The notes under the pieces are model-generated. The model saw only the letters and a list, made by a program, of their open reading frames with translations, made no database searches and was not told where the DNA came from. From Chondrosia reniformis (taxonomy: Eukaryota > Porifera > Demospongiae > Chondrillida > Chondrillidae): a stretch of 64,000 nt of DNA. The DNA is taken from assembly GCA_947172415.1 (NCBI GenBank), contig OX359192.1, forward strand, positions 3,908,501-3,972,500, given 5' to 3'. Shown here piece by piece: positions 1 to 48,629 of the stretch (its first letter is position 1; every line of letters starts with the position of its first letter). The position numbers and the translations under genes were made by a program.

Positions 1-1253
1 ATGTAATAGGTGTTTACTAGTTATAAGTCCTAGTTTTATGTACTCGTTCTATGTACTAATAGTTGTATGAACTACTTGTATGTACTATGTTTATGTACTA
101 TTTATACGTACTAGTTATATTTTTATGTATTAGTTATATGTGGTAGATGTGTGTACTAGTTATATGTACTAATTGCAAGTACTAGTTGTATGTACTAGTT
201 GTATGGACTAGTACTAGGTATATTTACTAGTTGTAGATACTAGTTGTATGTACTAGTTGTATGTATATACTAGTTGTATGTACTAGCTATATACTGGTTG
301 TATGTTCTAGTTGTATGTACTAGTTGTATGTACAAATGGTAGGTTCTTTTACTAGTTATACCAGGTGCTAGGAAGGTACTAGTTGTATGTAGAAGATACT
401 AATTTTATGTACTACTTTTATGTACTAGTTGTATGTACTATTTATATTTACAAGGTATGTGTATTTACTAGTTATATGTAGTAGGTGTATGTGCTAGTTG
501 CATGTACTAGTTGTATGTAATAATTGTATGTACTAGTTGTATTCACTAGTTTTATGTACTAGTCTTAGTTATATTTAGTAGTTGTAGGTACTAGTTATGT
601 ACCTGTTGTATGTACTAGTTGTATGTCTATACTAGTTATAAATAATAGCTATGCACTAGTTGTATATACAAGTTTTACGTTCTAGTATTATGTACTCGTT
701 CTATGAACCAGTTGTATGTACTAGTTTATAGTCGTATGTACTTGTTGTATGTACTAATTGTATGTACTATGCGTATGTACTATTTTAAGTGCCAGTTATA
801 TATGTATTTACTGGTTATATGTTTGTTTACTAGTTATATGTACTAGTTGTATGCACCAGCTGTATGTACTAGTTGTATGTACTATATTCATAATAACTAG
901 GTATATGTGTATTTACTAGTTAAATGTAGCAGATGTATGTACTAGATATATGTCCTAGTTGTTTGTCCTAGTTGTATGGACTAGTTGAATGTACTAGTTT
1001 TATGTACTAATTGTATGTGCTAGGTGTGTGTACTATTTGGTATGTACAAGTTGTATGTACCATTTCTATGTACTAGTTATGTACCAGTTGTATATAATAG
1101 TTGTATCTATATACTAGCTGTTAATATTGTTTGTACTAGTTGTATGTACCAGTTGTATGTATATACTAATTGTAAGTACTAGGTATGTTCTAGTTGTATG
1201 TATATACTAGTTTGTTGTTTATGTAGTAGTTGTATATGCTAGCGTTATGTACT

Positions 1254-1358
1254 CACACTATGAAAAATCTAGGATACCATTTTCCTACGTGCTATATGCC
1301 TATTCTGTAAAAAGAGCCTATAGGGGAACTAAACCTAAAGAGAACTTTTGGTTACACT
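1254..1358 (+). repeat. 105-bp non-satellite marker, copy 1 of the higher-order repeat
   Basis: A block of about 105 bp unrelated to the 13-bp unit. It starts CACACTATGAAAAATC and ends GGTTACACTATG, and is flanked by satellite on both sides. A second copy lies 2,825 bp downstream and two inverted copies lie at 44,035 and 46,821. It shares ACCTAAAGAGA with the copy at 46,821-46,926, making that its mirror partner. No function is visible. Confidence 0.85.
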
Positions 1359-4078
1359 ATGTACAAGTTGTATGTACTAGTTATGTACAAGTTGTATGTA
1401 CAAGTTATGTACCAGTTGAACATACTAGTTGTATGTAGTTGCTATGTACTAGTTGTATATACAAGTTGTATGTTCTAGTATTATGCACTCTATGAACTAG
1501 TAGTATTTACTAGTTTCTAGTTGTAAGTACTAGTTATATGTACTAGTTGTATGTACTATGTGTATGTACCAGTTGTTGATTCTTGTACTAGTTATAATAT
1601 GTACTAGGTAAATATTATTTGTATGTACTAGATACTAGTTGCATGTACTAGTTGTATGAACTAGTTTTATGAATTAGTTGTGTGTACTCTTTATATGTAC
1701 TAGTTATATCTACCAGTTATATCTACTAGTTTTATGTACTAGTGGTATGTACTAGTTATATTTACTAGCTGTATGTACTATTTGTGTACTAATTGTATGC
1801 AATAATTGTATGTACTAGTTGTAGGTTCTAGTACTACTTAAACTAGGTACTAAGGAGGGACTATATAGTTATATGTACTAGAAACTACTTGTATGTACTT
1901 CTTATATAAAGTAGTTATATGACCTAGTTGTATATACCAGTTGTATGTCCTAGTTGTATGTACCAGTTGTTTGTCCTAGCTGATTGTACTATTTACTAGT
2001 TATATGTACTAATTTTATCTACTAATTGTATGTACAAGTTGCATGTACTAGTTGCATGGAAATGTTGTGCGTTCTAGTTCAATGTACTAGTTGTATGTAC
2101 TCGTTACTAGTTGTTAGTAGTAGTTGTATGTACTAGTTTTATGTACTAATTCCAGTTATATGTACTAGTTGCAAGTACGATTCGTATGTCCTATTTCTAT
2201 GTACTAGTTGTATGCACTAGTTAATAGTTGTATAGTCTAGTTGTGTGTACTAGTTGTATGTACTATTTGTATATACTAATTGAATGTACAAATTGTATAT
2301 ACTAGGTGTATGTAGTAGTTGTATGTTCTAATTTTTTGAACTAGTTCTATGTACTAATTGTATGTACTAGTTATGTACTAGTTATATGAATTAGTTTTAA
2401 GTCCTAGTTCTGGGCACCAGTTGTATGTACTAGTTTTATGTACAACTTTTATGTACTATTTGTATGTACTATTTGTATGTACTAGTCGTATGAACTAGTA
2501 ATATTAACTAGCTATATGTACTATTTGTGTGTACTACTTGTATGCACTAGTTGTATGTACTAGTTGTATGTACTCAATACTATTTGTATGTACTAGTCGA
2601 ATGTAGTAGTCATTTGTACTAGTTGAATGTATAAGTAGTGGGTAATTGTTGTATGTACTAGTTATATGTACTAGTTGTATGTAGTATTTGTATGTACCAG
2701 TTGTATGTATTAGATGTTTTAATTAGTTTTAAGTTCTAGTACAAGTTTTACTAGGTACTAGGAATGAACTAGTTCTAAGAACTACTTGTTTGTTTGTGTG
2801 AACTAGTTTTCTATACTAGTTGTATGTACTATATTTATGTACTAATTATATGTGTAGGTGCTAGTCATATGTAATAGTTATATGTACTAGTTATATGTAC
2901 TAGTTGCAAGTACTAGTCACATGTACTAGTAGTATATACTAATTGTAGGTTTTAGTCCGAATTATACTAGGGACTAGGGAGGTACTAATTGTATATACTA
3001 GACATTATTTGTATGTACTATTCATATGCACTAGTTGTATGTATATACTAGTTGTATATACTAGCCCTGTACTAGTTGTAGGTTCTAGTTGTATGTACTA
3101 GTTGTACATACTAGGTGTATGTACCAGTTATATTTACTATTTGTATGAACTATTTATATGTCTGGTTACTAGTTATATGTACTAGTTGTATGTACTATTT
3201 ACATTTACTAGGTATACGTGTATGTACCAGATATATGTAGTAGGTGTATGTACTAGTTATATGTCATAGTTGTATGTACTAGTTGCATGTACTAGTTGTT
3301 TGTACTAGTTGTATGTACTAGTCGTATGTACTAATTATATTTACTAGTTACTAATTTTATGAACTAGTGGTGCCTACGAATTTTATGTACTGCTTGTATG
3401 TACTAGTTGTATGTACTAGTTGTATGTATATACCAGTTGTATGTACTAGTTAAATGTAGTAGGTGTGTGAACTTGTTATATATACTAGTTGAAAGTACTA
3501 GTTGTATATATGTGCCAATTGTATGTACACATTGTGTGTACTAGTTGTATGTTTATACTAGTTGAATGTACTAGCTTTGAAATAGATGTATGTTCTAGTT
3601 GTATGTACTAGATACTAGTTGCATGTACTATTTGCATGTACTAGTTGTACGTCCTAGTTGTATGTTCAAGTTGTATTTACTATCTACATGTACTAGTTAT
3701 ATGTTTGTGTACTAGTTATATGTACTAGTTGTATGCACTAGCTGTATGTACTAGATGTACTATTTATATTTTCTAGGTATATGTGTATGTACTCGTTCTA
3801 TGAATTAGTTGTATGTACTAGTTTCTAGTTGTATATACTAGTTGTATGTAGTTTTTGTATGTACTAGTACTATGTACTGGTACTAGTTATAATTACTAGA
3901 TGTAGGTACTGGTTGTATGTAGTAGTTGGATGTGGTAGTTGTATGTACTATTTGTTAGTACTAGTTGTATGTACCAGTTGTATGTATATACTAATTGTAA
4001 GTACTAGCTATGTTCTAGTTGTATGTATATACTAGTTTGTTGTATATGAAGTAGTTGTATATGCTAGTTTTATGTACT

Positions 4079-4184
4079 CACACTATGAAAAATCTAGGAT
4101 ACCATTTTCCTACGTGCTATATGCATATTCTGTAAAAAGAGCCTATAGGGGAACTAAACGTTAAGAGAGCTTTTGGTTACACTA
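4079..4184 (+). repeat. 105-bp non-satellite marker, copy 2
   Basis: Second + strand copy of the marker at 1,254. It carries the diagnostic variant CGTTAAGAGAGC, which is otherwise found (as CGTTAAGACAGC) in the inverted copy at 44,035-44,139. That pairs the two as mirror partners. The 2,825-bp spacing from copy 1 gives the clearest estimate of the higher-order unit length in this arm. Confidence 0.85.
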
Positions 4185-7100
4185 TGTACAAGTTGTATGT
4201 ACTAGTTATGTACCAGTTGAACGTACCAGTTGTATGTATATACTAGTTGTATGTAGTTGTGTGTACTAGTTGTATGTACTAGTTGTATGTACGTTTTGTA
4301 TGTACGTTTTGTATGTACTTGTTGGTTGTACTAGGTGTATGTACTATTTTTAAATACTAGTTATATGTGTATGTACTGGTTATATGTAGTAGTTGTATGT
4401 AACTTTTGTATATACAAGTTGCCTGTACTACGTGTATCCACTAGCTGTATGTACTAGTTGTAGGTTCTAGTACTAGTTATATTAGGTACTAAGTAGGCAT
4501 TAGTTGTATGTACTAGTTGTTAGGACTATTTGAACATATTAGATGTATGTACTAGTTCTATGTACTAGTACTAGTAATATTAACTAGTTGTAGGTACTGG
4601 TTGTATGTAGTAGTTGGATGTAGTAGTTGTATGTACTAATTGTATGTATTAGTTGTATGCACTAGTTTTATGTATATACTAGTTGTATGTAGTAGCTATG
4701 TACTAGTTGTATGTACTAGTTTCCTCTTTATGTAGTAGTTGTATATACTAGTTGAATGTTCTAACTGTATATAGTAGTTGTACAAACTCGATACTGTGTT
4801 CCAATCAAATGTAGTATTTATATGTATTAGTTGTATGTATTAGTTGTATGTACTAGTGACTAATTGTATGTACTAGTTGTATGTACTAGTTTTTTGAACT
4901 AGTTGTAGAAGCTATACTAGGAGCTAGGAAGGAACTTGTTCTATATACTACCTGTTTGTTTGTTTGCATTAGTTTTTTGTACTAATCGTATATACTAGTT
5001 GTATGTACTAGTTGTATGTACTAGTTGTAGGTTGAAGTCCTAGATACTAATTGTATGTACTAGTTGTATGTACCCTTGTATCTAATTGTACTAGTTGTAT
5101 GTATTATTTATATGTTTATGTGCTAGGTATATGTACTACTTGTATGTACTAGTTGGATGTACTAGTTGTATGTATTAGTTGTATGAACTAGATATGAACC
5201 AGTTGTAAGTACAAGATGTATGCACTAGTTGTTTGTACTAGCTATATAATAGGCTTTTGTATGTACTAGTTGTGTGAATTAGTTGTACATACTAATATTA
5301 TGTACTAGTTGAATGTACTCTTTGTATGTATATACAAGTTTTATGTCTAGTTAAATGTACTAGTGTTATATTTATACTCGTTGTATGGACTAGTTGCATG
5401 GACTAATTTCTTGTTGTATGTACTAGTTGTATGTACTATTTATATTTACTAGGTATATGTGTATGAACTAGTTGTATTTAGTAGGTGTATGTACTAGTTA
5501 TATATCCTAGTTGTTTGTACTCGTTGTATGTTCACGTTGAATGTACTATTTGTATGTACTATGTGTATGTACTATTTTTAAGTACCAGTTATATGTATGT
5601 AGTAGTTATATGTTTGTGAACTAGTTATATATACTAGTTGTATGCACTAGCTGTATGTACTAGTTGTATGTACTATTTATATTTACAAGGTATATGTGTA
5701 TTTACTAGTTATATGTAGTTGGTGTATGTACTAGTTATATATACTAGTTGTTTGTCCTAGTTGTATGTACTAGTTGAATGTACTAGTTATATGTACTAGT
5801 TGTATGGACTAGTTGTATGTACTCAATACTATTTATATGTACTAGTCGAATATAGTTGTAATTTGTACTAGTTGAATGTATAAGTAGTGTGTAATTGTTG
5901 TATGTACTTATTAAATGAATGAACTAGTTCTATGAGCTACTTGTTTGTTTGTGTGAACTAGTTTTCTGCACTAGTTGCATGTACTATATTTATGTGCTAA
6001 TTATTTGTGTATGTACTAGTCATATGTACTAGTTATATGTACTAGTTGTATGTACTAGTTGTATGTACTTGTGGTATATACTAGTTGTAGGTTCTAGTCC
6101 TAATTATACTAGGTACTAGGGAGGTACTAGTTGTATATACTAGACACTAGTTGTCTGTACTACTTGTATGTACTAGTTGTATGTACTAGTCGCATGTACA
6201 AGTTATATGTACTAGTTACTAGTTGTATGAACTAGGTGTACCTATTAATTTTATGTACTAGTTGGATGAACTAGTTGTATGTATATACCAGTTGTATATA
6301 CTAGCTAAATGTACTAATTTTATATATATACTAGTTGTATATATTAGTTTCCAGTTGTATTTACTAGTTTTATGTACTTGTTGTATGTACTATGTGGATT
6401 CACTATTTATTTGAACTAGTTATATTTTTATGCATTAGTTATAGGTAATAGGTGTGTGTACTAGTTATATGTACTAGAATTAGCTATATTTACTAGTTTT
6501 AGGTACTAGTAGTATGTATTAGTTGTATGGAGGAGTTGCATGTGCTAATTGTATGTACAAGTTCTGTGTACTAGTTGTATGTATATACTAGTTGTTATTA
6601 CTAGCTATGTACTAGTTGTATGTTCTAGTTGTATATACTAGATACTAGTTGAATGTACTAGTTGTAGGTACTAGTTGTATGTACTAGTTGTATTTACTAT
6701 TTGTATGTTCTATTTATATGTGTGTGTACTAGTTATATGTACTAGTTGTATGCGCTAGCTGTATGTAGTCATTGTATGTACTATTTACATTTACTAGGTA
6801 TACGTGTATGTACTAGATATATATAGTAGGTGTATGTACTAGTTATATGTCCTAGTTGTTTGTACTAGTTGTATGTTCTAGTTGTAAGTACTAGTTAAAT
6901 GCAGCAGATGTATGTACTATTTTTATCTACTGTTTATATATATGTGCTATGTGTATGTACAATATAAAAGTACCAGTTATATGAATGTAGTGGTTATATG
7001 TTTGTGAACTAGTTGTATGTACTAGTTGTATGCACTAGCTGTATGTACTAGTTGTATGTATTATTTATAATTATAAGGTACATGTGTATTTACTAGATAT

Positions 7101-10100
7101 ATATAGTTGGTGTATGTACTAGTTATATATCCTAGTTGTTTTTCCTAGTTGTATGTACTAGTTGAATGTACTAGTTATATGTACTAGTTACTAGTTGTAT
7201 GTACTGGTTATATGTACTAGTTAATGGTTGTGTGAACCAGTTGTACGACCTAATTGTAAATAGTATGTACTAGTTGGATGTACTATTCATAATTACTAGG
7301 TATATATGTATGTACTAGTTATATGTAGTAGATGTATGTACTAGTTATATTCCCTAGTTGTTTGTCCTAGTTATATGGACTAGTTGAATGTACTAGTTGT
7401 ATGTACTAATTGAATGGGCTAGGTGTTTGTACTATTTGGTATGTGTAGTTGTATGTACTATTTCTATGTACTAGTTATGTACCAGTTGTACGTAATAGTT
7501 GTATGTATATTCTAGTTGTTAATATTAGCTATGTACTAGATGTATATTCAAGCTCTATGTTCTATATAGTATTTTGTACTCGTTCTATGAACTAGGAGTA
7601 TTTTCTAGTTTCTAGTTGTATGTACTAGTTGTTAGTACTAGTTTTATTTACTATGTGTATGTACCAGTTGTTGATCCTTGTGCTAGTTATACTATGTACT
7701 AGGTAGGTTCTTTTTGTATGTACTAGATACTTGTTGTATGTGCTAGTTGTATGAACTAGTTTTATGAACTAGTTGTATGTACTGTTTATATGTACTAGTT
7801 ATATGTACCAGTTATATGTACCAGTTATATGTACTAGTAGTATGTACCAGTTATAATTACTAGCTTTATGTACTATTTGTGTGTATTAATTGTATGCACT
7901 TGTTGTATGTACTAGTTGTAGGTTCTAGTACTGGTTAAACTAGGTACTAGGTAGGTTCTTTATAGTTATATTTACTAGAAACTACTTGTATGTACTTGTT
8001 ATATAAAGTAGTTATATGACCTAGTTGTTTGTACCAGTTGTATGTCTTAGCTGATTGTACTATTTACTAGTTTTATGTACAAGTTGTGTGTAATAGTTCA
8101 ATGTAATAGTTGTATGTTTTCATTCCAATTTGTATGTACTAATTTTATCAACTAATTGTATGTACAAGTTGCATGTACTAGCTGCATGTACATGTTGTGC
8201 GTTCTAGTTCAATGTAATAGTTGTATGTACTCGTTAATAGTTGTTAGTAGTAGTTGTATGTTATAGTTTTATGTTTTAGTTCCAGTTATATGTACTAGTT
8301 GTAGGTACTAGTTGTATATATTAGTTGCAAGTACGATTCGTATGTCCTATTTGCATGTACCAGTTGTATGTACTAGTTAATACTTGTATAGTCTAGTTGT
8401 ATGTACTAGTTGCGTGCACTAGTTTAAAGTACTAGATGTATGTACTATGTGCGTGTTCCAGTTGTTGATTCTTGTACAGTTATACTATGTACTAGGTAGG
8501 TTCTAGTTGTATGTACTAAATACTTGTTGCATGTACTAGTTGTATGTACTAGTAGTATATACTAGTTCAAGGTTCTAATCCTAATTATACTAGGTACTAG
8601 GGAGGAACTAGTTGTATATACTAGACACTAGTTGTATGTACTAGTTATGTGTACTAGTTATATGTACTAGTTGTATGTACTAGTTGCATGTACTGTTTAT
8701 ATGTATAAGTTTTATATACTAGTTGTATGTACTACTTATATGTACTCGTTACATTTGTATGTACTGTGTGTGTGTACCAGTTGTTTGTACTAGTCATATA
8801 TACTAGTTGTACGTACTATTTATATATACTAAATATATGTGAATGTAATAGGTATATGTACTACTTGCATGTACAAGCTGTTGTAGCTGGCTGTATGTAC
8901 TAATTCTATGTACTAGTTGTATGTACTTGTTATATGTAGTAGATAGAACCAGATGTATGTACAAGATGTATGCACTAGTACTTTGTACTAGCTGTATACT
9001 AGTTTTAGGAACTAGTTGTATGTACTATGTGTTTGGACTAGTTGTATGTTCTAGTAGCATGTACTAGTTATATGTACTAGTTACTAGTTGTATGAACTAG
9101 CTGTAACTATTAAATTTATGTACTAGTTGTATGTACTAGTTAATAGTTGTATAGTCTAGTTGTATGTATTAGTTGTATGCACTAGATGTAAGTACTAGTT
9201 GTATGTACTATGTGTATGTACCAGTTGTTGATTCTTGTACTATTTATACTATGTATTAGGTAGGTTCTAGTTGTATGTACTAGACACTTGTTGCATGTAC
9301 TAGTTGTATGAACTAGTTTTATGAACTAGTTGGGTGTACTCTTTATATGTACTAGGTTTATGTACCAGTTATATGTACTAGTTGTATGTACTAGTAGTAT
9401 GTACTAGTTATATTTACTAGCTGTATGTACTATTTGTGTGTACTAATTGTATGCACTAGTTGTATGTACTACTTATATGTACTCGTTACAATTGTATGTA
9501 CTGGGTGTATGTACTAGTTGTTTGTACTAGTTATATATACTAGTTGTACGTACTATTTATATATACTATATATATGTGTATGTACTAGGCATATGTACTA
9601 CTTGTATGTACAAGCTGTATTAGCTGGTTGTAAGTACTAATTCTACATACTAGTTATATGTACTAGTTTTATATAGTAGATATGAACCAGTTGTTTGTAC
9701 AAGATGTATGCACTAGTTCTTAGTACTAGCTATATACTAGTTTTATGAACTTGTTGTATGTACTATGTGGATGTACTATTTATTTGAACTAGTTATATTT
9801 TTATGTATTATGTTATGTTTTATGTTATATGTACTAGTTGAAAGGACTAGTTGTTTGTACTAGTTGTAGGTACTAGAACTAGCTATATTTACTAGTTTTA
9901 GGTACTAGTTGTATGTATTCGTTGTATGTAGTAGTTGCATATGCTAATTGTAAGTACAAGTTCTGTGTACTATATAGTTGTATGTATATACTAGTTGTAT
10001 GTACCAGTTGTACGTACTAGTCGTATGTACCAGTTGTATTTACTATTTGTATATTCTATTTATATGTGTGTGTGTACTAATTATATTTACTTGTTGTAGC

Positions 10101-13100
10101 GCTAGCTGTATGTACTATTTGTATGTAATATTTACATTTACTAGGTATACGTGTATGTCCTAGTTATATGTCCTAGTTGTATGTACTAGTTGCAAGCACT
10201 AGTTGTATGTTCCAGTTGTATGTACTAGTCACATGTAAGAATTATATTTACTAGTTACTAATTTTAAAAACTAGTTGTACCTACGAATTTTATGTAATAG
10301 TTGTATGTACTCTTTGTATGTATATACTAGTTTTATGTACTAGTTAAATGTACTAGTGTTATATATATATTAGTTGTATGGACTAGGTTCTAGTTGTATG
10401 TACTAGTTTTATGTACCCGTTCAAGGTACTAGTTGTAAGGACTGTTTATAATTACTAGGTATATGTGTATGTACTAGTTGTATGTAGTAGGTGTATGTAC
10501 TAGTTATATGTCCTAGTTGTTTGTACTAGTTATATGTTCTAGTTGAATGTACTAGTTGTATGTACTAGTTGTATATTCTATTTGTGTGTATTGTTACGAT
10601 GTACTAGTTGTATGAACTAGTTCTATTTATATTTACTAGTTGTTATATGTTTGTGAACTAGTATTATATACTAGTTGTATGCACTAGCTGTATGTACTGG
10701 TTGTGTGTATATACTATTTATAATTACAAGGTATATGTATATTTACTAGTTATATGTAGTTGGTGTATGTACTAGTTATCTATCCTTGTTGTTTGTCCTA
10801 GTTGTATCTACTAGTTTAATGTACTAGTTATATGTACTCGTTAATAGTTGTATGTACTAGTTGTATGTACTAGTTGCATGTACTGGTTATATGTACTAGT
10901 TAATAGTTGTGTGAACTAGTTGTAAAACCTAGTTGTATGAACTAGTGTTTGTATATACTAGTTAAATGTACTAGTTTCTAGTTGCATGTACTAGTTTTAT
11001 GAACTAGTTATATATACTATATGGATGCACTATTCATATGTACTAGTTATATATTTATACTAATTTTATGTCGTAGGTGTGTACTAGTTTTAGGTCCTAG
11101 TTTTATTTACTACTTCTATGTACTAGTAGTTGTATGAACTACTTGTATGTACTATGTTAATGTACTATATATATGTGATAGTTATATTTTTAGGTATTAG
11201 TTATATGTGGTAGATGTGTGTACTAGTTAAATGAACAATTTGCAAGTACTAGTTGTATGTACTAGTTGTATGGACTAGTACTAGTTATATTTACTAGTTG
11301 TAGATACTAGTTGTATGTACTTGTTGTATGTATATACTAGTTGTATGTACTAATTGTATGTCCTAGGTGTGTGTACTAAATGGAATGTATTAGTTGTATG
11401 TATTCTTTGTATGTACTAGTTATATGTACTAATTTTATCTACTAATTGTATGTTCAAGTTGCATGTACTAGTTGCATGAACATGTTGTGCATACTACTTC
11501 AATGTACTAGTTGTGTGTACTCATTACTAGTTGTTAGTTGTAGGTGTAAGTACTAGTTTTATGAACTGGTTCCAGTTTTATGTACTAGTTGTAGGTACTA
11601 GTTGTATTTATTAGTTGCAAGTACGATTCGTATGTCCTATTTGCATGTACTAGTTGTATGTAATAGTTGTATGTACTAGTTTTAGATTCAAGTCCTAGTT
11701 ATATTAGATACTAGGGAGGTGCTAGTTCTATGTACTAGATACTAATTATATGTACTTATTGTTTGTACCAGTTGTGTGTAATTGTACCAGTTGTATGTAC
11801 TATTTGTATGTACGAGTTGTATGTACCAGTTGTATGTACTAGGTGTATGTAGTAGTTGTATGTTCTAATTGTTTGAACTAGTTCTATGTACTAATTGTAT
11901 GTACAAGATATGTACTAGTTACTAGTTTCTAGTTGTATGTACTATTTATAAGTACTAGTTGTATGTACTATGTGTATGTACCAGTTGTTGATTCTTGTAC
12001 TACTTATACTTTGTACTAGGTAGGTTCTAGTTGTATGTACTAGATACTTGTTGCATGTACTAGTTTTCTGAACTAGTTGTATGAACTAGTTGTATGTTCT
12101 GTTTATATGTACTAGTTATATGTACCAGTTATATGTACTAGTTTTATGTACTATTAGTATGTACAAGTAATATTTACTAGCTGTATGTACTATCTGTGTG
12201 TACTAATTGTATGCACTAGTTGTATGTACTAGTTGTATGTACTCAATACTATTTGTATGTACTAGTCGAATGTAGTAGTTATTTGTACTAGTTGAATGTA
12301 TAAGTAGTGTGTAATTGTTGTATGTACTAGTTATATGTACTAGTTGTATGTACTAGTTGTATGTACTAGTTGGATGTACTAGTTGTATGTACTAGATGTT
12401 TGAACTAGTTTTAGGTTCTAGCACAAGTTATACTTAGTACTAGGAATGAACTGGTTCTATGAACTACTTGTTTGTTGGTGTGAACATGTTTTTTGTACTA
12501 GTTGCATGTACTATATTTATGTACTAATTATATGTGTATGTACTAGTCATATGTACCAGTTATATGTACTAGTTGAATGTACCACTTTAGTGTAATTTTT
12601 GTATGAACTAGTTGTATGTACTACTTATATGTACCCGTTACATTTGTATGTACTGGGTGTATGTACCAGTTGTTTGTACTAGATATGAACCAGTTGTATG
12701 TACAAGATATATGCACTAGTTCTTTGTACTAGCTGTATACTAGTTTTATGAACTAGTTGTATGTACTAGTTGAATGTACTAGTTGTATGTACTAGTCGCA
12801 TGTACTAGTTATATGTACTAGTTACTAGTTGTATGAACTAGTTGTACCTATTAATTTTATGTACTGGTTGTATGGATATACCAGTTGTATGTACTAGCTA
12901 TGTACTAGTTGTATGTTCTAGTTTTATGTACTAGTTTCTAGTTGTATGTACCATGTGTGTGTACTATTCATATATACTAGTTATATGTTTATGTATTAGT
13001 TATATGTAGTAGGTGTTTGAACTTGTTATATGTACTAGTTGAAAGTACTAGATGTATGTGCTATTTGTAAGTACACGTTCTGTGTACTAGTTGTATGTTT

Positions 13101-15903: not shown

Positions 15904-16174
15904 TATTAGGGGCTGTATTATGTATAATATGAGTTCATACTCAAGTTTTGTAACACTTAATTTATACGTCAATACCTTGTTTTTGCAAATGGCGGCGTTC
16001 AGGAAGCTTTGGTTAACGAAGCTTTTCCATCGTTATTTATAAAGTTCAGGACACTCAAGCGTCCTCAAATTTTAGTATTCCGAATGTATATATCAAATCC
16101 CAATGATGCGGCCAAGTAGTTTGAGTTAATTCGGGGGGCAGCAGCCCCAGGAGTTTTTAAACTCGAAACACTTC
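15904..16174 (+). mobile_element. Hairpin-ended element, copy A
   Basis: A 271-bp island starting TATTAGGGGCTGTATT. It ends with two adjacent hairpins: a GC-rich one (GGGG...GCCCC) and CGAGTTTTTAAACTCG. Related copies are B (21,503-21,892), C (inverted, 32,074-32,342) and the outer part of D (56,903-59,045). A conserved ATGGCGGCGTTCAGGAAG in the middle opens only about 16 codons, so it is probably not translated. Comparison with uninterrupted satellite (GTTAAATGTACTAGTTTTATATATA) places the insertion at the TACTAG core with loss of about 2 bp. The superfamily is uncertain; terminal hairpins without inverted repeats suggest a rolling-circle or fold-back type. Confidence 0.7.
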
Positions 16175-28135: not shown

Positions 28136-28143
28136 ACTGCACT

Positions 28144-28569: not shown

Positions 28570-28690
28570 GTTAGAGGCACGAGCATAGCTATAACGAAAC
28601 GTGTTAGCGTGGGTGTATAGCAGCTGCTACCTAATCAAGCTTCGGTCGTATAGCTGCGAACGCCACTTCTGTATCTGTTTCTCACTTTAG

Positions 28691-31149: not shown

Positions 31150-31978
31150 TATGTTTATGTACTAGGTATATGTACTACTTGTGGGTACTAGCTGTATTAG
31201 CTGGTTGTATGTACTAAGTCTAATTACTAGTTGTATGTACTAGTTGTATTTACTATTTGTATGTACTATTTATATGTGTGGGTACTAGTTATATGTACTA
31301 GTTGTATGCGCTAGCTGTATGTACTAGTTGTAGATACTATTTACATTTACTAGGTATACGTGTATTGTACTAGTTATATGTAGTAGGTGTATGTACTTGT
31401 TATATGGCCTATTTGTATGTACTAGTTGCATGTACTAGTTGTATGGACTAGTTGTATATACTAGTCGCATGTACTAATTATATTTACTAGTTACTAATTT
31501 TATGAACTAGTTGTACCTACGAAATTTATGTTATACTTGTATGTACTAGCTAAAGGTACTAGTTTTATATATATACTAGTTGTATGTACTAGTTTTAGTT
31601 GTATGTACTATGTGTTTGTACTATTCATATATACTAGTTATATGTTTATGTATTAGTTATATGTAGTAGGTGTGTGAACTTGGTATAAGTACTAGTTGTA
31701 TGTGCTAATTGTTTGTATACGGTCGGTGTAATAGTTGTATGTTTTTACTAGTTGTATGTACTAGCTTTGTACTAGTTGTATGTTCTAATTGTTTAAACTA
31801 GTTCTATGTACTAATTGTATGTACTAGGTATGTACTAGTTACTAGTTTCTAGTTGTATGTACTAGTTGTAAGTACTAGTTGTAAGTACTAGTTTTTTGTA
31901 CTATGTGTATGTACCAGTTGTTGATTCTTGTACTACTTATACTATGTACAAGGGAGGTTCTAGTTGTATGTACTAGAT
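31150..31978 (+). repeat. 13-bp satellite array, + orientation
   Basis: Mirror of 21,985-22,807. It ends at the flip TACTAGATAC/TACAACTAGA. Confidence 0.93.
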
Positions 31979-32073
31979 ACTACAACTAGAAACTAGAATA
32001 TACATCTAGTATATATATAAAACTAGTACATTTAACTAGTCTACAACTGGTATATACATACAACTAGTACAAA
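31979..32073 (-). repeat. 13-bp satellite, - orientation, short link
   Basis: Mirror of the 21,893-21,984 satellite, nearly identical to it in reverse complement. It leads into element C. Confidence 0.9.
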
Positions 32074-32342
32074 CAAGTATTTCGAGTTTAAAAACTCGTG
32101 GGGCTACCGCCCCCGCATTAACTCAAACTACTTGGCCGCATCATTGGGATTTGATATATACATTCGGAATACTAAAATTTGAGGACGATTTAGTGTCCTG
32201 AACTTTATAAATAACGATGGAAAAGTTTCGTAAACTAAAGCTTCCTGAACGCCGCCATTTGTAAAAACCATGTATTGACGTATAAATTAAGTGTTACAAA
32301 ACTTGAGTATGAACTCATATTATACATAATACAGCCCCTAAT
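32074..32342 (-). mobile_element. Hairpin-ended element, copy C (A/B chimera)
   Basis: Inverted relative of A and B. Its outer end and outer flank (TAGGGGCTGTATTATG..., AGCAGTTGTATGTAC) match A. Its inner end and flank (CGAAATACTTGTTTGTAC) match B. Internally it alternates: CTTTAGTTTACGA and CTAAATCGTCC as in B, CCGAATGTATATATC and TGATGCGGCCAAG as in A, GGGGCGGTAGCCCC as in B. This is the pattern expected from recombination or conversion between an A-type and a B-type copy. Confidence 0.75.
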
Positions 32343-38300: not shown

Positions 38301-41300
38301 AATAATACATCCACATAGTACATACAACAAGTTCATAAAACTAGTATATAGCTAGTACTAAGAACTAGTGCATACATCTTGTACAAACAACTGGTTCATA
38401 TCTACTATATAAAACTAGTACATATAACTAGTATGTAGAATTAGTACTTACAACCAGCTAATACAGCTTGTACATACAAGTAGTACATATGCCTTGTACA
38501 TACACATATATATAGTATATATAAATAGTACGTACAACTAGTATATATAACTAGTACAAACAACTAGTACATACACCCAGTACATACAATTGTAACGAGT
38601 ACATATAAGTAGTACATACAACTAGTGCATACAATTAGTACACACAAATAGTACATACAGCTAGTAAATATAACTAGTACATACTACTAGTACATACAAC
38701 TAGTACATATAACTGGTACATAAACCTAGTACATATAAAGAGTACACCCAACTAGTTCATAAAACTAGTTCATACAACTAGTACATGCAACAAGTGTCTA
38801 GTACATACAACTAGAACCTACCTAATACATAGTATAAATAGTACAAGAATCAACAACTGGTACATACACATAGTACATACAACTAGTACTTACATCTAGT
38901 GCATACAACTAATACATACAACTAGACTATACAACTATTAACTAGTACATACAACTAGTACATAAATTTAATAGTTACAGCTAGTTCATACAACTAGTAA
39001 CTAGTACATATAACTAGTACATGCTACTAGAACATACAACTAGTCCAAACACATAGTACATACAACTAGTTCCTAAAACTAGTATACAGCTAGTACAAAG
39101 TACTAGTGCATACATCTTGTACATACATCTGGTTCTATCTACTACATATAACAAGTACATACAACTAGTACATAGAATTAGTACATACAGCCAGCTACAA
39201 CAGCTTGTACATGCAAGTAGTACATATACCTATTACATTCACATATATTTAGTATATATAAATAGTACGTACAACTAGTATATATGACTAGTACAAACAA
39301 CTGGTACACACACACAGTACATAAAAATGTAACGAGTACATATAAGTAGTACATACAACTAGTATATAAAACTTATACATATAAACAGTACATTCAACTA
39401 GTACATACAACTAGTACATATAACTAGTACACATAACTAGTACATACAACTAGTGTCTAGTATATGCAACTAGTTCCTCCCTAGTACCTAGTATAATTAG
39501 GATTAGAACCTTGAACTAGTATATACTACTAGTACATACAACTAGTACATGCAACAAGTATTTAGTACATACAACTAGAACCTACCTAGTACATAGTATA
39601 ACTGTACAAGAATCAACAACTGGAACACGCACATAGTACATACATCTAGTACTTTAAACTAGTGCACGCAACTAGTACATACAACTAGACTATACAAGTA
39701 TTAACTAGTACATACAACTGGTACATGCAAATAGGACATACGAATCGTACTTGCAACTAATATATACAACTAGTACCTACAACTAGTACATATAACTGGA
39801 ACTAAAACATAAAACTATAACATACAACTACTACTAACAACTATTAACGAGTACATACAACTATTACATTGAACTAGAACGCACAACATGTACATGCAGC
39901 TAGTACATGCAACTTGTACATACAATTAGTTGATAAAATTAGTACATATAACTAGTACATACAAATTGGAATGAAAACATACAACTATTACATTGAACTA
40001 TTACACACAACTTGTACATAAAACTAGTAAATAGTACAATCAGCTAAGACATACAACTGGTACAAACAACTAGGTCATATAACTACTTTATATAACAAGT
40101 ACATACAAGTAGTTTCTAGTAAATATAACTATAAAGAACCTACCTAGTACCTAGTTTAACCAGTACTAGAACCTACAACTAGTACATACAACAAGTGCAT
40201 ACAATTAATACACACAAATAGTACATAAAGCTAGTAATTATAACTGGTACATACTACTAGTACATATAACTGGTACATATAACTGGTACATATAACTAGT
40301 ACATATAAACAGTACATACAACTAGTTCATAAAACTAGTTCATACAACTAGCACATACAACAAGTATCTAGTACATACAAAAAGAACCTACCTAGTACAT
40401 AGTATAACTAGCACAAGGATCAACAACTGGTACATACACATAGTAAATAAAACTAGTACTAACAACTAGTACATACAACTAGAAACTAGAAAATACTCCT
40501 AGTTCATAGAACGAGTACAAAATACTATATAGAACATAGAGCTTGAATATACATCTAGTACATAGCTAATATTAACAACTAGAATATACTTACAACTATT
40601 ACGTGCAACTGGTACATAACTAGTACATAGAAATAGTACATACAACTACACATACCAAGTAGTACAAACACCTAGCCCATTCAATTAGTACATACAACTA
40701 GTACATACAACTAGTCCATATAACTAGGACAAACAACTAGGAAATATAACTAGTACATACATCTACTACATATAACTAGTACATACATATATACCTAGTA
40801 ATTATGAATAGTACATACAACTAGTACATACTATTTACAATTAGGTCGTACAACTGGTTCACACAACCATTAACTAGTACATATAACCAGTACATACAAC
40901 TAGTAACTAGTACATATAACTAGTACATTCAACTAGTACATACAACTAGGAAAAACAACTAGGATATATAACTAGTACATACACCAACTATATATAACTA
41001 GTAAATACACATATACCTTATAATTATAAATAATACATACAACTAGTACATACAGCTAGTGCATACAACTAGTATATACAACTAGTTCACAAACATATAA
41101 CCACTACATTCATATAACTGGTACTTTTATATTGTACATACACATAGCACATATATATAAACAGTAGATAAAAATAGTACATACATCTGCTGCATTTAAC
41201 TAGTACTTACAACTAGAACATACAACTAGTACAAACAACTAGGACATATAACTAGTACATACACCTACTATATATATCTAGTACATACACGTATACCTAG

Positions 41301-44034
41301 TAAATGTAAATAGTACATACAATGACTACATACAGCGCATACAACTAGTACATATAACTAGTACACACACATATAAATAGAACATACAAATAGTAAATAC
41401 AACTAGTACATTCAACTAGTATCTAGTATATACAACTAGAACATACAACTAGTACATAGCTAGTAATAACAACTAGTATATACATACAACTAGTACACAG
41501 AACTTGTACATACAATTAGCACATGAAACTCCTCCATACAACTAATACATACTACTAGTACCTAAAACTAGTAAATATAGCTAATTCTAGTACATATAAC
41601 TAGTACACACACCTATTACATATAACTAATGCATAAAAATATAACTAGTTCAAATAAATAGTGAATCCACATAGTACATACAACAAGTACATAAAACTAG
41701 TAAATACAACTGGAAACTAATATATACATACAACTAGTATATATATAAAATTAGTACATTTAGCTAGTATATACAACTGGTATATACATACAACTAGTTC
41801 ATCCAACTAGTACATAAAATTAATAGGTACACCTAGTTCCTACAACTAGTAACTATATAGTACATATAACTTGTACATGCGACTAGTACATACAACTAGT
41901 ACATACAAGTAGTACAGACAACTAGTGTCTAGTATATACAACTAGTACCTCCCTAGTACCTAGTATAATTAGGACTAGAACCTACAACTAGTATATACCA
42001 CAAGTACATACAACTAGTACATACAACTAGTACATATAACTAGTACATATGACTAGTACATACACAAATAATTAGCACATAAATATAGTACATGCAACTA
42101 GTGCAGAAAACTAGTTCACACAAACAAACAAGTAGCTCATAGAACTAGTTCATTCATTTAATAAGTACATACAACAATTACACACTACTTATACATTCAA
42201 CTAGTACAAATTACAACTATATTCGACTAGTACATATAAATAGTTTTGAGTACATACAACTAGTCCATACAACTAGTACATATAACTAGTACATTCAACT
42301 AGTACATACAACTAGGACAAACAACTAGTATATATAACTAGTACATACACCAACTACATATAACTAGTAAATACACATATACCTTGTAATTATAAATAGT
42401 ACATACAACTAGTACATACAGCTAGTGCATACAACTAGTATATATAACTAGTTCACAAACATATAACTACTACATACATATAACTGGTACTTATAAATAG
42501 TACATACACATAGTACATACAAATAGTACATTCAACGTGAACATACAACGAGTACAAACAACTAGGATATATAACTAGTACATACACCTACTAAATACAA
42601 CTGGTTCATACACATATACCTAGTAAATATAAATAGTACATACAACTAGTACATACAACAAGAAATTAGTCCATACAACGAGTATATATATAACACTAGT
42701 ACATTTAACTAGACATAAAACTTGTATATACATACAAAGAGTACATTCAACTAGTACATACTATTAGTATGTGCAACTAATTCACACAACTAGTACATAC
42801 AAAAACCTATTATATAGCTAGTACAAACAACTAGTGCATACATCTTGTACTTACAACTGGTTCATATCTAGTTCATACAACTAATACATACAACTAGTAC
42901 ATCCAACTAGTACATACAATTAGTACATACAACTACCACATACAACTTGTACATACAACTAGCACCTAGAACTAGTAAATATAACTAGTATTAGTACATA
43001 CAACTTGTAGATAGAATTAGTACATACAACCAGCACATACAGCTAGTACATACAAGTAGTACATATACCTAGTACATAAACATATAAATAGTACATACAA
43101 CTAGGACAATTAGATACAAGGGTACATACAACTAGTACATACAATTAGTATCTAGGACTTCAAACTACAACTAGTACATACAACTAGTACATACAACTAG
43201 TATATACGATTAGTACAAAAAACTAATTCAAACAAACAAACAAGTAGTATATAGAACAAGTTCCTTCCTAGCTCCTAGTATAGCTTCTACAACTAGTTCA
43301 AAAAACTAGTACATACAACTAGTACATACAATTAGTCACTAGTACATACAACTAATACATACAACTAATACATATAAATACTACATTTGATTGGAACATA
43401 GTATCGAGTTCGTACAACTACTATATACAGTTAGAACATTCAACTAGTATATACAACTACTACATAAAGAGGAAACTAGTACATACAACTAGTACATTGC
43501 TACTACATACAACTACTATATACATAAAACTAGTGCATACAACTAATACATACAATTAGTACATACAACTACTACATCCAACTACTACATACAACCAGTA
43601 CCTACAACTAGTTAATATTACTAGTACTAGTAAATAGAACTAGTACATACATCTAATATGTTCAAATAGTCCTAACAACTAGTACATACAACTAATGCCT
43701 ACTTAGTACCTAATATAACTAGTACTAGAACCTACAACTAGTACATACAGCTAGTGGATACATGTAGTACAGGCAACTTGTATATACAAAAGTTACATAC
43801 AACTACTACATATAACCAGTACATACACATATAACTAGTATTTAAAAATAGTACATACACCTAGTACAACCAACAAGTACATACAAAACGTACATACAAA
43901 ACGTACATACAACTAGTACATACAACTAGTACACACAACTACATACAACCAGTATATACATACAACTAGTATGTTCAACTGGTACATAACTTGTACATAC
44001 AACTTGTACATAACTAGTACCTACAACTTGTACA

Positions 44035-44139
44035 CAGTGTAACCAAAAGCTGTCTTAACGTTTCGTTCCCCTATAGGCTCTTTTTACAGAATAGGCATAT
44101 AGCACGTAGGAAAATGGTATTCTAGATTTTTCATAGTGT
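44035..44139 (-). repeat. 105-bp non-satellite marker, inverted copy (partner of 4,079)
   Basis: Reverse complement of the marker, with the CGTTAAGACAGC variant that links it to the copy at 4,079-4,184. Confidence 0.85.
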
Positions 44140-46820
44140 GAGTACATAAAACTAGCATAAACAACTACTTCATATACAACAAACTAGTATATACATACAA
44201 TTAGAACATAGCTAGTACTTACATTTAGTATATACATACAACTGGTACATACAACTAGTACTAACAAATAGTACATACAACTACTACCAGTACATAGTAC
44301 TAGTACATACAAAAACTACATACAACTAGTATATACAACTAGAAACTAGTACATACAACTAATTCATAGAACGAGTACATACACATATACCTAGAAAATA
44401 TAAATAGTACATTCAACTAGTACATACAGCTAGTGCATACAACTAGTACATATAACTAGTACACAAACATATAACTAGTACATGTAGATAGTAAATACAA
44501 CTTGAACATACAACTAGGACGTACAACTAGTACATGCAAATAGTACATGCAACTAGTATCTAGTACATACAACTAGAACATACATCTATTTCAAAGCTAG
44601 TACATTCAACTAGTATAAACATACAACTAGTACACAGAACGTGTACATACAATTGGCACATATATACAACTAGTACTTTCAACTAGTACATATAACAAGT
44701 TCACACACCTACTACATTTAACTAGTACATACAACTGGTATATATATACATACAACTAGTACATACAACTAGTACATACAAGCAGTACATAAAATTCGTA
44801 GGCACCACTAGTTCATAAAATTGGTAACTAGTAAATATAATTAGTACATGCGACTAGTACATACAACTAGTACAAAAAACTAGTACATGCAACTAGTACA
44901 TACAACTATGACATATAACTAGTACATACACCTACTACATATATCTGGTACATACACGTATACCTAGTAAATGTAAATAGTACATACAACTAGTACATAT
45001 AACTAGTAACCAGACATATAAATAGTTCATACAAATAGTAAATATAACTGGTACATACACCTAGTGCGTACAACTAGTACAGGGCTTGTATATACAACTA
45101 GTATATACATACAACTAGTGCATATGAATAGTACATACAACTAATGTCTAGTATATACAATTAGTACCTCCCTAGTCCCTAGTATAATTCGGACTAAAAC
45201 CTACAATTAGTATATACTACTAGTACATGTGACTAGTACTTGCAACTATTACATATAACTAGTACATATAACTATTACATATGACTAGCACCTACACATA
45301 TAATTAGTACATAAATATAGTACATACAACTAGTACAGAAAACTAGTTCACACAAACAAACAAGTAGTTCTTAGAACTAGTTCATTCCTAGTACCTAGTA
45401 AAACTTGTACTAGAACTTAAAACTAATTAAAACATCTAATACATACAACTGGCACATACAAATACTACATACAACTAGTATATATAACTAGTACATACAA
45501 CAATTACCCACTACTTATACATTCAACTAGTACAAATGACTACTACATTCGACTAGTATATAAAAATAGTATTGAGTACATACAACTAGTACATACAACT
45601 AGTGCATACAAGTAGTACACACAAATAGTACATATAGCTAGTTAATATTACTAGTTCATACGACTAGTACATACAAATAGTACATACAAATAGTACATAA
45701 AAGTTGTATATAAAACTAGTACATACAACTGGTGCCCAGAACTAGGACTTAAAACTATATTCATATAACTAGTACATAACTAGTACATACAATTAGTACA
45801 TAGAACTAGTTCAAAAAATTAGAACATACAACTACTACATACACCTAGTATATACAATTTGTACATTCAATTAGTATATACAAATAGTACATACAACTAG
45901 TTCACACAACTAGACTATACAACTATTAACTAGTACATACAACTAGTACATAGAAATAGGACATACGAATCGTACTTGCAACTAATAAATACAACTAGTA
46001 CCTACAACTAGTACATATAACTGGAACTAGTACATAAAACTAGTACATACAACTACTACTAAGAACTAGTAATGAATACATACAGCTAGTACATTGAACT
46101 AGAACACACAACATTTCCATGCAACTAGTACATGCAACTTGTACATACAATTAGTAGATAAAATTAGTACATATAACTAGTAAATAGTACAATCAGCTAG
46201 GACAAACAACTGGTACATACAACTAGGACATACAACTGGTATATACAACTAGGTCATATAACTACTTTATATAAGAAGTACATACAAGTAGTTTCTAGTA
46301 CATATAACTATATAGTCCCTCCCTAGTACCTAGTTTAAGTAGTACTAGAACCTACAACTAGTACATACAATTATTGCATACAATTAGTACACAAATAGTA
46401 CATACAGCTAGTAAATATAACTAGTACATACCACTAGTACATAAAACTAGTAGATATAACTGGTAGATATAACTAGTACATATAAAGAGTACACACAACT
46501 AATTCATAAAACTAGTTCATACAACTAGTACATGCAACTAGTATCTAGTATATACAAATAATATTTACCTAGTACATAGTATAACTAGTACAAGAATCAA
46601 CAACTGGTACATACACATAGTACATACAACTAGTACATATAACTAGTACTTACAACTAGAAACTAGTTCATAGAGTGCATAATACTAGAACATACAACTT
46701 GTATATACAACTAGTACATAGCAACTACATACAACTAGTATATACATACAACTAGTATGTTCAACTGGTACATAACTTGTACATACAACTTGTACATAAC
46801 TAGTACATACAACTTGTACA

Positions 46821-46926
46821 TAGTGTAACCAAAAGCTCTCTTTAGGTTTAGTTCCCCTATAGGCTTTTTTTACAGAATAGGCATATAGCACGTAGGAAAA
46901 TGGTATCCTAGATTTTTCATAGTGTG
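46821..46926 (-). repeat. 105-bp non-satellite marker, inverted copy (partner of 1,254)
   Basis: Reverse complement of the marker with the ACCTAAAGAGA variant of copy 1. It lies 2,786 bp from the other inverted copy, close to the 2,825 bp between the + copies. Confidence 0.85.
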
Positions 46927-48629
46927 CGTACATAACACTAGCATATACAACTACTACATAATCAACAAACTAGTATATACATACAACTAGAACATACCTA
47001 GTACTTACAATTAGTATATACATACAACTGGTACATTCAACTAGTACAAACAATATTAACAGCTAGTATATAGATACAACTATTATATACAACTGGTACA
47101 TAACTAGTACATAGAAATGGTACATACAACTTGTATATACCAAATAGTACACACACCTAGCACATACAATTAGTACATAAAACTAGTACATTCAACTAGT
47201 CCATACAACTAGGACAAACAACTAGGACATATATCTAGTACATACATCTACTACATTTAACTAGTAAATACACATATACCTAGTTATTATGAATAGTACA
47301 TACAACTAGTACATACAGCTGGTGCATACAACTAGTACATATAACTAGTAAACAAACATATAACCAGTAAATACATATATAACTGGCACTTAAAAATAGT
47401 GCATACGCATAGTACATACAATTAGTACATACAACAAGTACATACAACTATAAACTAGTACATACAACTGGTTCATAGAACGAGTACATAATACTAGAAC
47501 GTAAAACTTGTATATACAACTAGGGCATAGATATTATTTATAACTAGTATAGACATACAACTAGTACATACAACAGGTACATAACTAGTACCTACAACTA
47601 CTAAATATAACTAAGACTAGTACATAAAACTAGTGAATACAACTAGTACATACAATTATTACATACAACTAGTACATGCAACTAGCACATACACCTACTA
47701 CATATAACCAGTAAATACACATACTTTGTAATTATAAATAGTACATACAACTAGTACTAAAAGTAGTACATAAAATTAGTATCTTCTACATACAACTAGT
47801 ACCTTCCTAGCACCTGGTATAACTAGTAAAAGAACCTACCATTTGTACATACAACTAGTACATACAACTCGAACATACAACCAGTACATAGCTAGTACAT
47901 ACAACTAGTATATACATACAACTAGTACATACAACTAGTATCTACAACTAGTAAATATACCTAGTACTAGTCCATACAACTAGTACATACAACTAGTACT
48001 TGCAATTAGTACATATAACTAGTACACACATCTACCACATATAACTAATACATAAAAATATAACTAGTACGTATAAATAGTACATAAACATAGTACATAC
48101 AAGTAGTTCATACAACTATTAGTACATAGAACGAGTACATAAAACTAGGACTTATAACTAGTAAACACCTATTACATATAATTAGTACATAAATATATAA
48201 CTAGTACATATGAATAATGCATCCATATAGTATATATAACTAGTACATAAAACTAGTATATGCAACTAGAAACTAGTATATACAACTAGAAACCAGTACA
48301 TACAACTAATATATACATAAAGCTAGTACGTTTAACTAGTTCATACAACTATTATATACAAACAACTAGTTCATACAGCTAGTATTTACAATTAGGTCGT
48401 ACAAGTAGTTCACACAACTATTAACTAGTACATATATATAACCAGTACATGAAACTAATACATACAACTAGTATATACATACAACTAGTTCATACAACTA
48501 GTATTCACAATTAGTACTTTCAATTAGTCCATACAACTAGGACAAAAAACTAGGATATATATCTAGTACATACACCAACTACATATAACTAGTAAATAAA
48601 CATATACCTAGTACTTATAAATTGTACAT

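What the first reader, a model, noticed from the sequence alone, without database searches (positions are those of the whole stretch)
1..48177. Giant inverted duplication built of satellite DNA
The left and right halves mirror each other over at least 48 kb: 1-16,174 against 32,074-48,177 and 21,503-24,294 against 29,253-32,342. Evidence is the shared order of unit variants, paired 105-bp markers with private variants, an identical 61-codon stretch (9,978-10,163 / 37,918-38,103), and inserted elements at equivalent sites. Long palindromes in a short-unit satellite, still close to base-by-base alignable, are unusual and imply a recent fold-back event or ongoing gene conversion between the arms.
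Basis: partly seen in the sequence, partly recalled or inferred. Interest (0 to 1): 0.85.

Follow-up and report, generated by a model that had tools for sequence, protein, structure and literature searches.

The report
Fold-back palindrome in sponge centromere-like satellite
A stretch of repetitive DNA in the middle part of a kidney-sponge chromosome has been copied backwards next to itself to make an almost 90-kb mirror image, and the scar of the copying step is still readable; other mirrors lie nearby, and markers on another chromosome hint at one over a million bases long.

Summary
Confirmed, and larger than reported. The window is C4:3.909-3.973 Mb of an assembly matching the kidney sponge Chondrosia reniformis. 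Aligned in register, arms 1-16,236 and 32,024-48,177 are 99.1% identical; BLAST's 93.8% was out of register. The palindrome runs on outside the window to -21.7 kb and 65.8 kb: arms 38 and 34 kb, spacer 15.8 kb. A 100-bp arm marker occurs exactly twice genome-wide, once per arm. Listed matches of the 13-bp satellite fall in one main interval on each of 14 chromosomes (plus a C3 patch), in both orientations on C1-C11, so it is probably (peri)centromeric. The right spacer boundary is a hybrid of two ~80%-identical inverted ~325-bp elements. There the window switches from matching another module copy's right flank to matching its left flank inverted. This indicates a fold-back or template switch between inverted repeats, with the left arm as donor. 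Divergence is uneven (0.3-1.6%), which fits later arm-to-arm conversion. C4 has a second, 167-kb palindrome. On C3, four marker pairs mirror each other about 3.69 Mb over 1.44 Mb. Reads, Hi-C and CENP-A data were not available. An inverted haplotype join is unlikely for the window but not excluded for C3.

The parts
1..16236 (+). Left (donor) arm A, 13-bp satellite TACTAGTTGTATG; continues upstream of the window to about -21,713
32024..64000 (-). Right (copied) arm A', inverted; 32,024-48,235 pairs with -57..16,236, 48,718-52,729 with -6,174..-2,362, 52,748-65,813 with -21,713..-8,732; runs past the window end to about 65,813
15925..16200 (+). L-type copy of the ~325-bp element at the inner end of the left arm (approximate limits)
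32024..32350 (-). Hybrid L/M-type ~325-bp element at the right spacer boundary: the junction of the inverted duplication
   Evidence: 38 diagnostic sites read L x23, M x5, L x7, M x3 (about the first 19 L sites are flank); 5 control copies have 0 or 1 L site each; matching switches flank here
16237..32023 (.). Spacer of the palindrome. Most of 14.5-33.4k matches, in blocks, the module copy at C4 about 3.7085-3.7327 Mb
20669..23820 (.). Left half of the older inner inverted repeat (module), pairs with 33,371-30,099
30099..33371 (.). Right half of the older inner inverted repeat
21520..21869 (+). M-type copy of the ~325-bp element
22823..23511 (-). 712-bp element with terminal inverted repeats, left copy (93% to the right copy)
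30425..31134 (+). 712-bp element, right copy
27401..29236 (.). Foldback-type element at the module centre; 27,422-27,928 is inverted at 28,732-29,236 (97.4%); HTH_Tnp_Tc5 and HIRAN fragments

Best explanation
A real interstitial inverted duplication inside the probable (peri)centromeric 13-bp satellite domain of C. reniformis chromosome 4. Inferred sequence of events: a break or stalled fork at the right edge of a palindrome-prone module exposed an M-type ~325-bp element. It paired with the inverted, ~80%-identical L-type element at the inner end of the left arm, about 16 kb away. Synthesis then copied the left arm outwards for some 34-38 kb before rejoining. This left the module as spacer, a hybrid 325-bp element at the right boundary, and two arms about 1.3% diverged today. 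Later arm-to-arm conversion homogenised part of the spacer-proximal arm, and element insertions and 13-bp-register indels made the arms unequal. Shown: arms, extent, uniqueness, hybrid junction and flank switch, uneven divergence, module copies. Inferred: the break, the polymerase step, the conversion and the centromeric role.
For: Arms 0.90% and 1.31% diverged over 15,968 and 12,818 aligned bases. Marker found twice genome-wide. Hybrid boundary element: 38 diagnostic sites in 4 runs (1 of 10,000 shuffles as few). With the ~19 flank sites left out, 19 sites in 4 runs (232 of 100,000 shuffles); 5 control M-type copies show 0 or 1 L site each. The left boundary is unbroken in a module copy: -199,968..-196,749 matches 14,499..17,688 straight through 16,236. 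Right boundary: per 250-bp bin, 28-mers matching that copy's right flank number 43-176 from 28.25k to 32.25k and 0-22 beyond, while 28-mers matching its left flank inverted number 0 before 32.0k and 156-203 from 32.25k to 33.5k, where the fetched copy ends soon after. Uneven divergence. A third, older copy of the arm lies at 82.7-114k. Left-of-P1 and right-of-P1 share no match of 85% or more longer than 282 bp. Literature: human fold-back duplications have 766-70,466-bp spacers, and 3 of 21 sequenced junctions lie in ~300-bp inverted repeats 82-95% alike that form hybrids (PMC3907307, passages).
Against: Arm divergence (~1.3%) may be of the order of that between the two haplotypes of a heterozygous animal, and I had no reads or depth. 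About 19 of the 23 first L-type sites lie in flank rather than in the homologous element. A plain BLAST of 32,360-33,400 gave a less clean contrast (86% to the left flank inverted, 76% best to the right-flank region). The anchor chain carries a direct block on to 33,397, though on sparse anchors only. The outer end of the copied arm is buried in a tandem triplication, so the second junction is unseen. The conversion claim rests on a twofold rate difference that rate variation or two events could mimic, and the innermost few kb are not the most alike.
Confidence: 0.74

Rival explanations
1. Assembly artefact: the two haplotypes of one satellite block were joined head to head, so the 'arms' are alleles.
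For: Arm divergence of ~1.3% could be haplotype divergence; the assembly report shows many haplotype-specific k-mers (primary 69.43%, combined 93.73% completeness) and four haplotypic duplications removed by hand (PMC12181767, part 1 of 5).
Against: No N in 314 kb. Symmetry stops at -21.7k/65.8k with flanks that share no match of 85% or more longer than 282 bp, whereas alleles should stay collinear. The spacer does not pair arm to arm as the arms do. The hybrid 325-bp element would have to be chimeric in the reads.
Confidence: 0.1
2. Palindrome made by reciprocal inverted recombination between sister chromatids (U-type exchange) followed by breakage-fusion-bridge.
For: Many inverted copies at several scales suit repeated cycles.
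Against: U-type exchange predicts no spacer (PMC3907307 passage), whereas here the spacer is 15.8 kb; a dicentric step in mid-chromosome would need rescue (inference).
Confidence: 0.08
3. Old palindrome kept alike only by gene conversion; the age of the fold-back is unknown and the hybrid element is itself a conversion product.
For: Uneven divergence; the mosaic L/M/L/M pattern also fits conversion.
Against: Conversion inside the element alone does not explain why the sequence beyond it is the left flank inverted, with the right flank gone.
Confidence: 0.2

Closest known systems
Fold-back inverted duplications in human genomes (PMC3907307, passages seen)
   Same: Inverted arms round a kb-scale spacer; in 3 of 21 junctions inverted ~300-bp repeats 82-95% alike at the boundary, forming a hybrid repeat
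   Different: Here interstitial, inside a 13-bp satellite, found at several nested scales, and part of a reference genome rather than a pathogenic variant
Inverted-repeat-associated centromeres of Candida tropicalis and Schizosaccharomyces pombe (PMC4741521, passages seen)
   Same: Mirror-image repeats flank a central domain; arms of one centromere are more alike than arms of different centromeres
   Different: There (C. tropicalis) a 2-5 kb non-repetitive core between 2-5 kb repeats, with kinetochore binding shown; here the spacers hold modules or ~250-bp tandem arrays, the arms are tens of kb or more of satellite, and no CENP-A data exist
Ape Y-chromosome palindromes with arm-to-arm gene conversion (recalled; PMC11168930 seen only as listing and abstract start)
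   Same: Long inverted arms about 99% alike
   Different: These arms are satellite with transposon fragments, in a probable pericentromere
DUP-TRP/INV-DUP and origin-dependent inverted-repeat amplification (recalled; PMC4689423 seen only as listing and abstract start)
   Same: Inverted repeats mediate an interstitial inverted copy
   Different: Triplication not shown here for the arm itself, apart from an older third copy at 82.7-114k

Membership tests
Fold-back / inverted-repeat-mediated inverted duplication | Two long inverted arms round a spacer | tested here: met
Fold-back / inverted-repeat-mediated inverted duplication | Inverted homology at the spacer boundary | tested here: met
   ~325-bp elements at 15.9-16.2k and 32.02-32.35k in inverted orientation
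Fold-back / inverted-repeat-mediated inverted duplication | Hybrid element at the junction | tested here: met
   with 5 control copies; flank switch
Fold-back / inverted-repeat-mediated inverted duplication | Spacer at normal copy number, no terminal loss | not testable with these tools
   no reads or arrays
Centromeric satellite | One main array per chromosome, same region of each | tested here: met
   listed 13-bp matches on C1-C14, at 23-59% of chromosome length on C1-C4 whose lengths are known; an extra patch on C3 at 6.98-7.16 Mb (all three listings are partial, C12-C14 only)
Centromeric satellite | CENP-A occupancy or Hi-C centromere signal | not testable with these tools
   no ChIP or Hi-C data
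Fission-yeast-like regional centromere | Inverted repeats flank the core | tested here: inconclusive
   C4 167-kb palindrome round ~250-bp arrays; C3 mirrored markers about 3.69 Mb; but it is not shown that the centre is a kinetochore core
Fission-yeast-like regional centromere | Non-repetitive core | tested here: not met
   the C4 centre holds ~250-bp tandem arrays and transposons
Fission-yeast-like regional centromere | Same plan on every chromosome | tested here: inconclusive

The most novel reading that the evidence does not exclude
Sponge centromeres are mirror-image domains. On chromosome 3 the central satellite domain (at least 2.98-4.42 Mb) is one 1.44-Mb palindrome, and on chromosome 4 there is a 167-kb one, each centred near ~250-bp tandem arrays that could be the kinetochore core. 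Repeated fold-back at foldback-element modules, followed by arm conversion, builds and maintains the symmetry. This would be an animal counterpart of inverted-repeat yeast centromeres at 10-100 times the scale.
Probability: 0.28. Interest if true: 0.92.

Novelty: new variant of a known kind. Interest (0 to 1): 0.66.

Why it matters
My searches of the open-access library found no paper describing a sponge centromere satellite. If the domain is centromeric, it shows that centromeres of an early-branching animal rearrange not only by tandem gain and loss but by repeated inverted copying whose junctions can be read. That makes a fold-back model of centromere evolution directly testable, because the hybrid junction, the nested ages and the mirrored markers each give predictions for reads, other individuals and CENP-A mapping.

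Tried and rejected
Three sharp blocks of high divergence inside the arms first looked like replacement by foreign satellite. One search showed that the two long ones match at about 94-98% at an offset of ~100-137 bp, so these were alignment artefacts, and I redid the P1 and one P2 arm figure. The dispersion figures (longest substitution-free run 1,110 against 172 expected) are inflated for the same reason and are not used.

A tRNA-like stretch suspected in the ~250-bp unit: ARAGORN found 0 tRNAs in 25 of 25 loci given and in the window. The Rfam gathering search found only 4 hammerhead matches in 11 loci and nothing in the window. Dropped.

Strand bias's listing was rejected: searches list exact places absent, and counts are balanced (2124/2225; 55/76).

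C3 mirror symmetry was first seen in listings. One of seven module clusters (2.767 Mb, no mirror partner) was left out of the Monte Carlo (fraction 0.0017), so that figure is post hoc. One of the five module pairs has both modules on the same strand, against a plain mirror. Two further markers have no copy in the C3 satellite interval and could not test it. A haplotype-join artefact was considered and kept as a rival.
Full report
WHERE IT IS. The window is G000:C4:3,908,501-3,972,500 of a 117,379,552-base, 15-contig genome. C15 is a 17,451-base contig with cox1. [quoted passage not shown] PMC12181767, abstract start, part 1 of 5 of the text). The identification rests on size, chromosome number and organelle length, not on a sequence match to a named record. 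The terms 'centromer', 'satellite' and 'telomer' do not occur in that paper's main text.

THE SATELLITE. The unit is TACTAGTTGTATG. A three-unit pattern with <=3 mismatches has 24,233 forward and 23,046 reverse matches genome-wide; with <=1 mismatch 2,124 and 2,225 (its complement as pattern); an exact four-unit pattern 55 and 76, of which the first 100 of 131 places (C1-C11) are listed. All three listings are partial. Over them the places fall in one main interval per chromosome: C1 3.8-4.3, C2 4.8-6.1, C3 2.2-4.9, C4 3.1-4.6, C5 2.9-3.6, C6 3.9-4.7, C7 3.3-4.2, C8 2.5-3.5, C9 2.9-3.6, C10 2.8-4.0 and C11 2.8-3.8 Mb. C12-C14 have only a few listed places, and C3 has an extra patch at 6.98-7.16 Mb. 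C1-C4 are 10.41, 10.29, 9.42 and 8.95 Mb long; there the interval lies at 23-59% of the length. One shared satellite interval per chromosome, away from the ends, is what a (peri)centromere looks like; this is inference. In one search, 7 of the 11 listed chromosomes (C3, C6-C11) switch orientation more than once, C5 switches once, and C1, C2 and C4 show one strand only; these three show the other strand.

THE PALINDROME (P1; negative numbers lie upstream of the window). A map of exact 28-mers over 314 kb (20 upstream and 5 downstream 10-kb stretches plus the window) shows collinear inverted blocks: -21,713..-8,749 with 65,786..52,766; -6,174..-4,497 with 52,729..51,092; -4,491..-2,362 with 50,854..48,718; and -38..16,130 with 48,189..32,117. 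So the left arm spans about 38 kb, the right about 34 kb, and the spacer about 15.8 kb. Anchored alignment gives 144/15,968 substitutions (0.90%) for the inner block and 168/12,818 (1.31%) for the outer block; 7 of 14 and 8 of 18 gaps of 6 bp or more are multiples of 13. BLAST values of 92-94% for the inner block were too low: one search shows that the two long, apparently diverged blocks match at about 94-98% once shifted by ~100-137 bp. A 100-bp arm marker has exactly two genome matches at <=3 mismatches, one in each arm.

UNEQUAL ARMS. A 2.6-kb stretch at -8,749..-6,174 is present only in the left arm. It holds a DDE_3 transposase fragment, and the right arm reads through the equivalent point as plain satellite. 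On the right, a unit of about 7.7-8.1 kb is repeated about three times (57.7-81.1k); an 885-base probe shows 0 differences among these three copies. A third, older copy of the arm, A'', lies at 82.7-114k in the left-arm orientation.

AGES. Three-way comparison: A-A' 1.1-1.6% in five of seven segments but 0.38% and 0.32% at 7.3-9.4k and 10.0-11.5k; A-A'' 1.4-2.6% in the three outer segments and 3.3-6.5% in the four inner ones. Within P1's inner block the distal 5,500 positions hold 74 substitutions and the proximal 10,468 hold 70 (Fisher p=3e-5; change-point scan reached by 1 of 2,000 permutations). Uneven divergence fits arm-to-arm conversion; two events of different age would also do. The innermost few kb are not the most alike, so there is no simple gradient towards the centre.

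THE MODULE. The spacer is not random. Most of 14.5-33.4k matches, in blocks, a stretch at C4 about 3.7085-3.7327 Mb in direct orientation. Its core is an older, nested inverted repeat: 325-bp element, 712-bp element, foldback-type element, inverted 712-bp element. The foldback element carries a Tc5-type DNA-binding domain and HIRAN fragments here, and a frame with HTH_Tnp_Tc5 plus DDE_1 in another copy. Its internal part matches full length in 15 places, 11 on C3 and 4 on C4; a split copy lies at C3 3.561 Mb, and partial copies on C2, C4, C10, C11 and C14 (44 matches, 40 of 42 candidates scored). The 712-bp element is more widespread (40 of 1,073 candidates scored).

THE JUNCTION. The inner end of the left arm carries an L-type ~325-bp element (15.9-16.2k), about 80% identical to the M-type copies of the modules. 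The copy at the right boundary (32.02-32.35k) is a mosaic: at 38 sites separating the L- and M-types it reads 23 L, 5 M, 7 L, 3 M (1 of 10,000 shuffles has as few runs). Five M-type copies scored the same way have 0, 0, 0, 1 and 0 L sites. About the first 19 L sites are in flanking sequence that is not homologous between the types; without them 19 sites in 4 runs remain (232 of 100,000 shuffles). The left boundary is unbroken in the other module copy (-199,968..-196,749 with 14,499..17,688). The right boundary is a switch point: counted per 250-bp bin, 28-mers matching that copy's right flank number 43-176 from 28.25k up to 32.25k and 0-22 beyond, while 28-mers matching its left flank in inverted orientation number 0 before 32.0k and 156-203 from 32.25k to 33.5k; the fetched sequence of that copy ends at the equivalent of about 33.7k. 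A plain BLAST showed the contrast less clearly (86% against 76%). The simplest reading is that the left side is ancestral and the right side is a copy made after pairing of inverted repeats. Human fold-back duplications show the same parts: spacers of 766-70,466 bp and, in 3 of 21 junctions, ~300-bp inverted repeats 82-95% alike forming a hybrid (PMC3907307, passages).

ARTEFACT CHECK. The 314 kb examined hold no N. If the right arm were the other haplotype joined backwards, sequence beyond 65.8k should continue to mirror sequence before -21.7k; between -60..-22k and 66..114k the longest match of 85% or more is 282 bp. Read depth was not available.

OTHER PALINDROMES. On C4, -189.9..-140.4k mirrors -23.1..-67.5k in several blocks (palindrome P2, about 167 kb, centre about C4:3.804 Mb). 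In one block divergence is about 1.1% over the first 6 kb and 2.6% over all 7,853 aligned bases, the last part being ~250-bp array. Between the arms lie ~250-bp tandem arrays, which also occur on C2, C3, C7, C10 and C14 among the listed matches (32 of 620 candidates scored). The stretch also holds transposase, reverse-transcriptase and kinase-like frames.

CHROMOSOME 3. From, ten of twelve module places on C3 pair about 3.69 Mb with coordinate sums of 7,379-7,395 kb; the two at 2.75 and 2.78 Mb do not. In four of the five pairs the two modules lie on opposite strands, as a mirror requires; in the fifth (3.206/4.177 Mb) they lie on the same strand. I had noted the prediction x to 7,378,800-x. 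A 1.4-kb arm marker from C4 then matched C3 at 3,575,087(+) and 3,801,948(-), sum 7,378,334, and at 3,220,579(+) and 4,164,486(-), sum 7,386,364; a fifth C3 copy at 2,768,635 has no partner; other copies are on C4 (3), C14, C7 and, in part, C2 (all 20 candidates scored). A 60-base satellite string from C3:3,141,133, searched for a mirror copy near 4.24-4.25 Mb (expectation not written down beforehand), has six matches: itself, C3:4,250,038 in opposite orientation with 0 mismatches (sum 7,391,230), a second mirrored C3 pair 2,978,176(-)/4,417,394(+) (sum 7,395,629), and one each on C11 and C14. So four pairs from two markers are mirrored over 1.44 Mb, the centre drifting by about 9 kb. Two other markers have no copy in this interval and test nothing.

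LITERATURE. Paper searches for sponge centromere satellites returned nothing on the subject; the Ephydatia muelleri paper mentions a centromere once in passing, and the passages shown of the ctenophore-sister paper estimate centromeres by Hi-C in unicellular relatives. Searches on palindromes or inverted repeats in centromere satellites (listings of 15 or fewer) brought up inverted-repeat yeast centromeres, human and yeast fold-back duplications, reviews and ape sex chromosomes, but no listed title on giant palindromes in an animal satellite domain. Candida tropicalis centromeres have a 2-5 kb core between 2-5 kb inverted repeats (PMC4741521, passages). Preprints and most subscription journals were not searchable.

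VERDICT. Each ingredient is known (inverted duplication, palindrome arm conversion, satellite centromeres); their combination at this scale in an animal satellite domain looks like a new variant. The bold reading, that such mirror domains are how this sponge builds its centromeres, is open and testable.

Noticed in passing
C4:3,837,303 onward (L024:8803 to L025), upstream of the window: A 359-bp tandem array carries type I hammerhead ribozymes (4 matches at the Rfam gathering score), resembling retrozyme-type repeats (that name is recalled).
   Followed up: no
C4 about 3.785-3.858 Mb (L019-L026): ~250-bp tandem satellite arrays, AT-rich with a conserved GC-richer stretch, on the minus strand left and plus strand right of about C4:3.80 Mb among listed matches; copies on C2, C3, C7, C10, C14.
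   Followed up: partly
window 57,745-64,000 continuing to 81.1k: A unit of about 7.7-8.1 kb repeated about three times with 0 differences over an 885-base probe, so very recent, or a copy-number error of the assembly.
   Followed up: partly
L015:44-820 (C4 about 3.7385 Mb): A frame with CENP-B_N and HTH_Tnp_Tc5 domains within the P2 arm; the module's foldback element also bears an HTH_Tnp_Tc5 domain.
   Followed up: no
L017:1244-2242 (C4:3.7597 Mb): A kinase-like open frame (PF00069) in the P2 arms; three C4 copies 97-99% alike and a diverged copy on C1.
   Followed up: partly
G000:C3:6,983,489-7,156,875: A satellite patch outside the main C3 interval, including a nearly pure run of the 13-bp unit at 7,003,506-7,003,622.
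   Followed up: no
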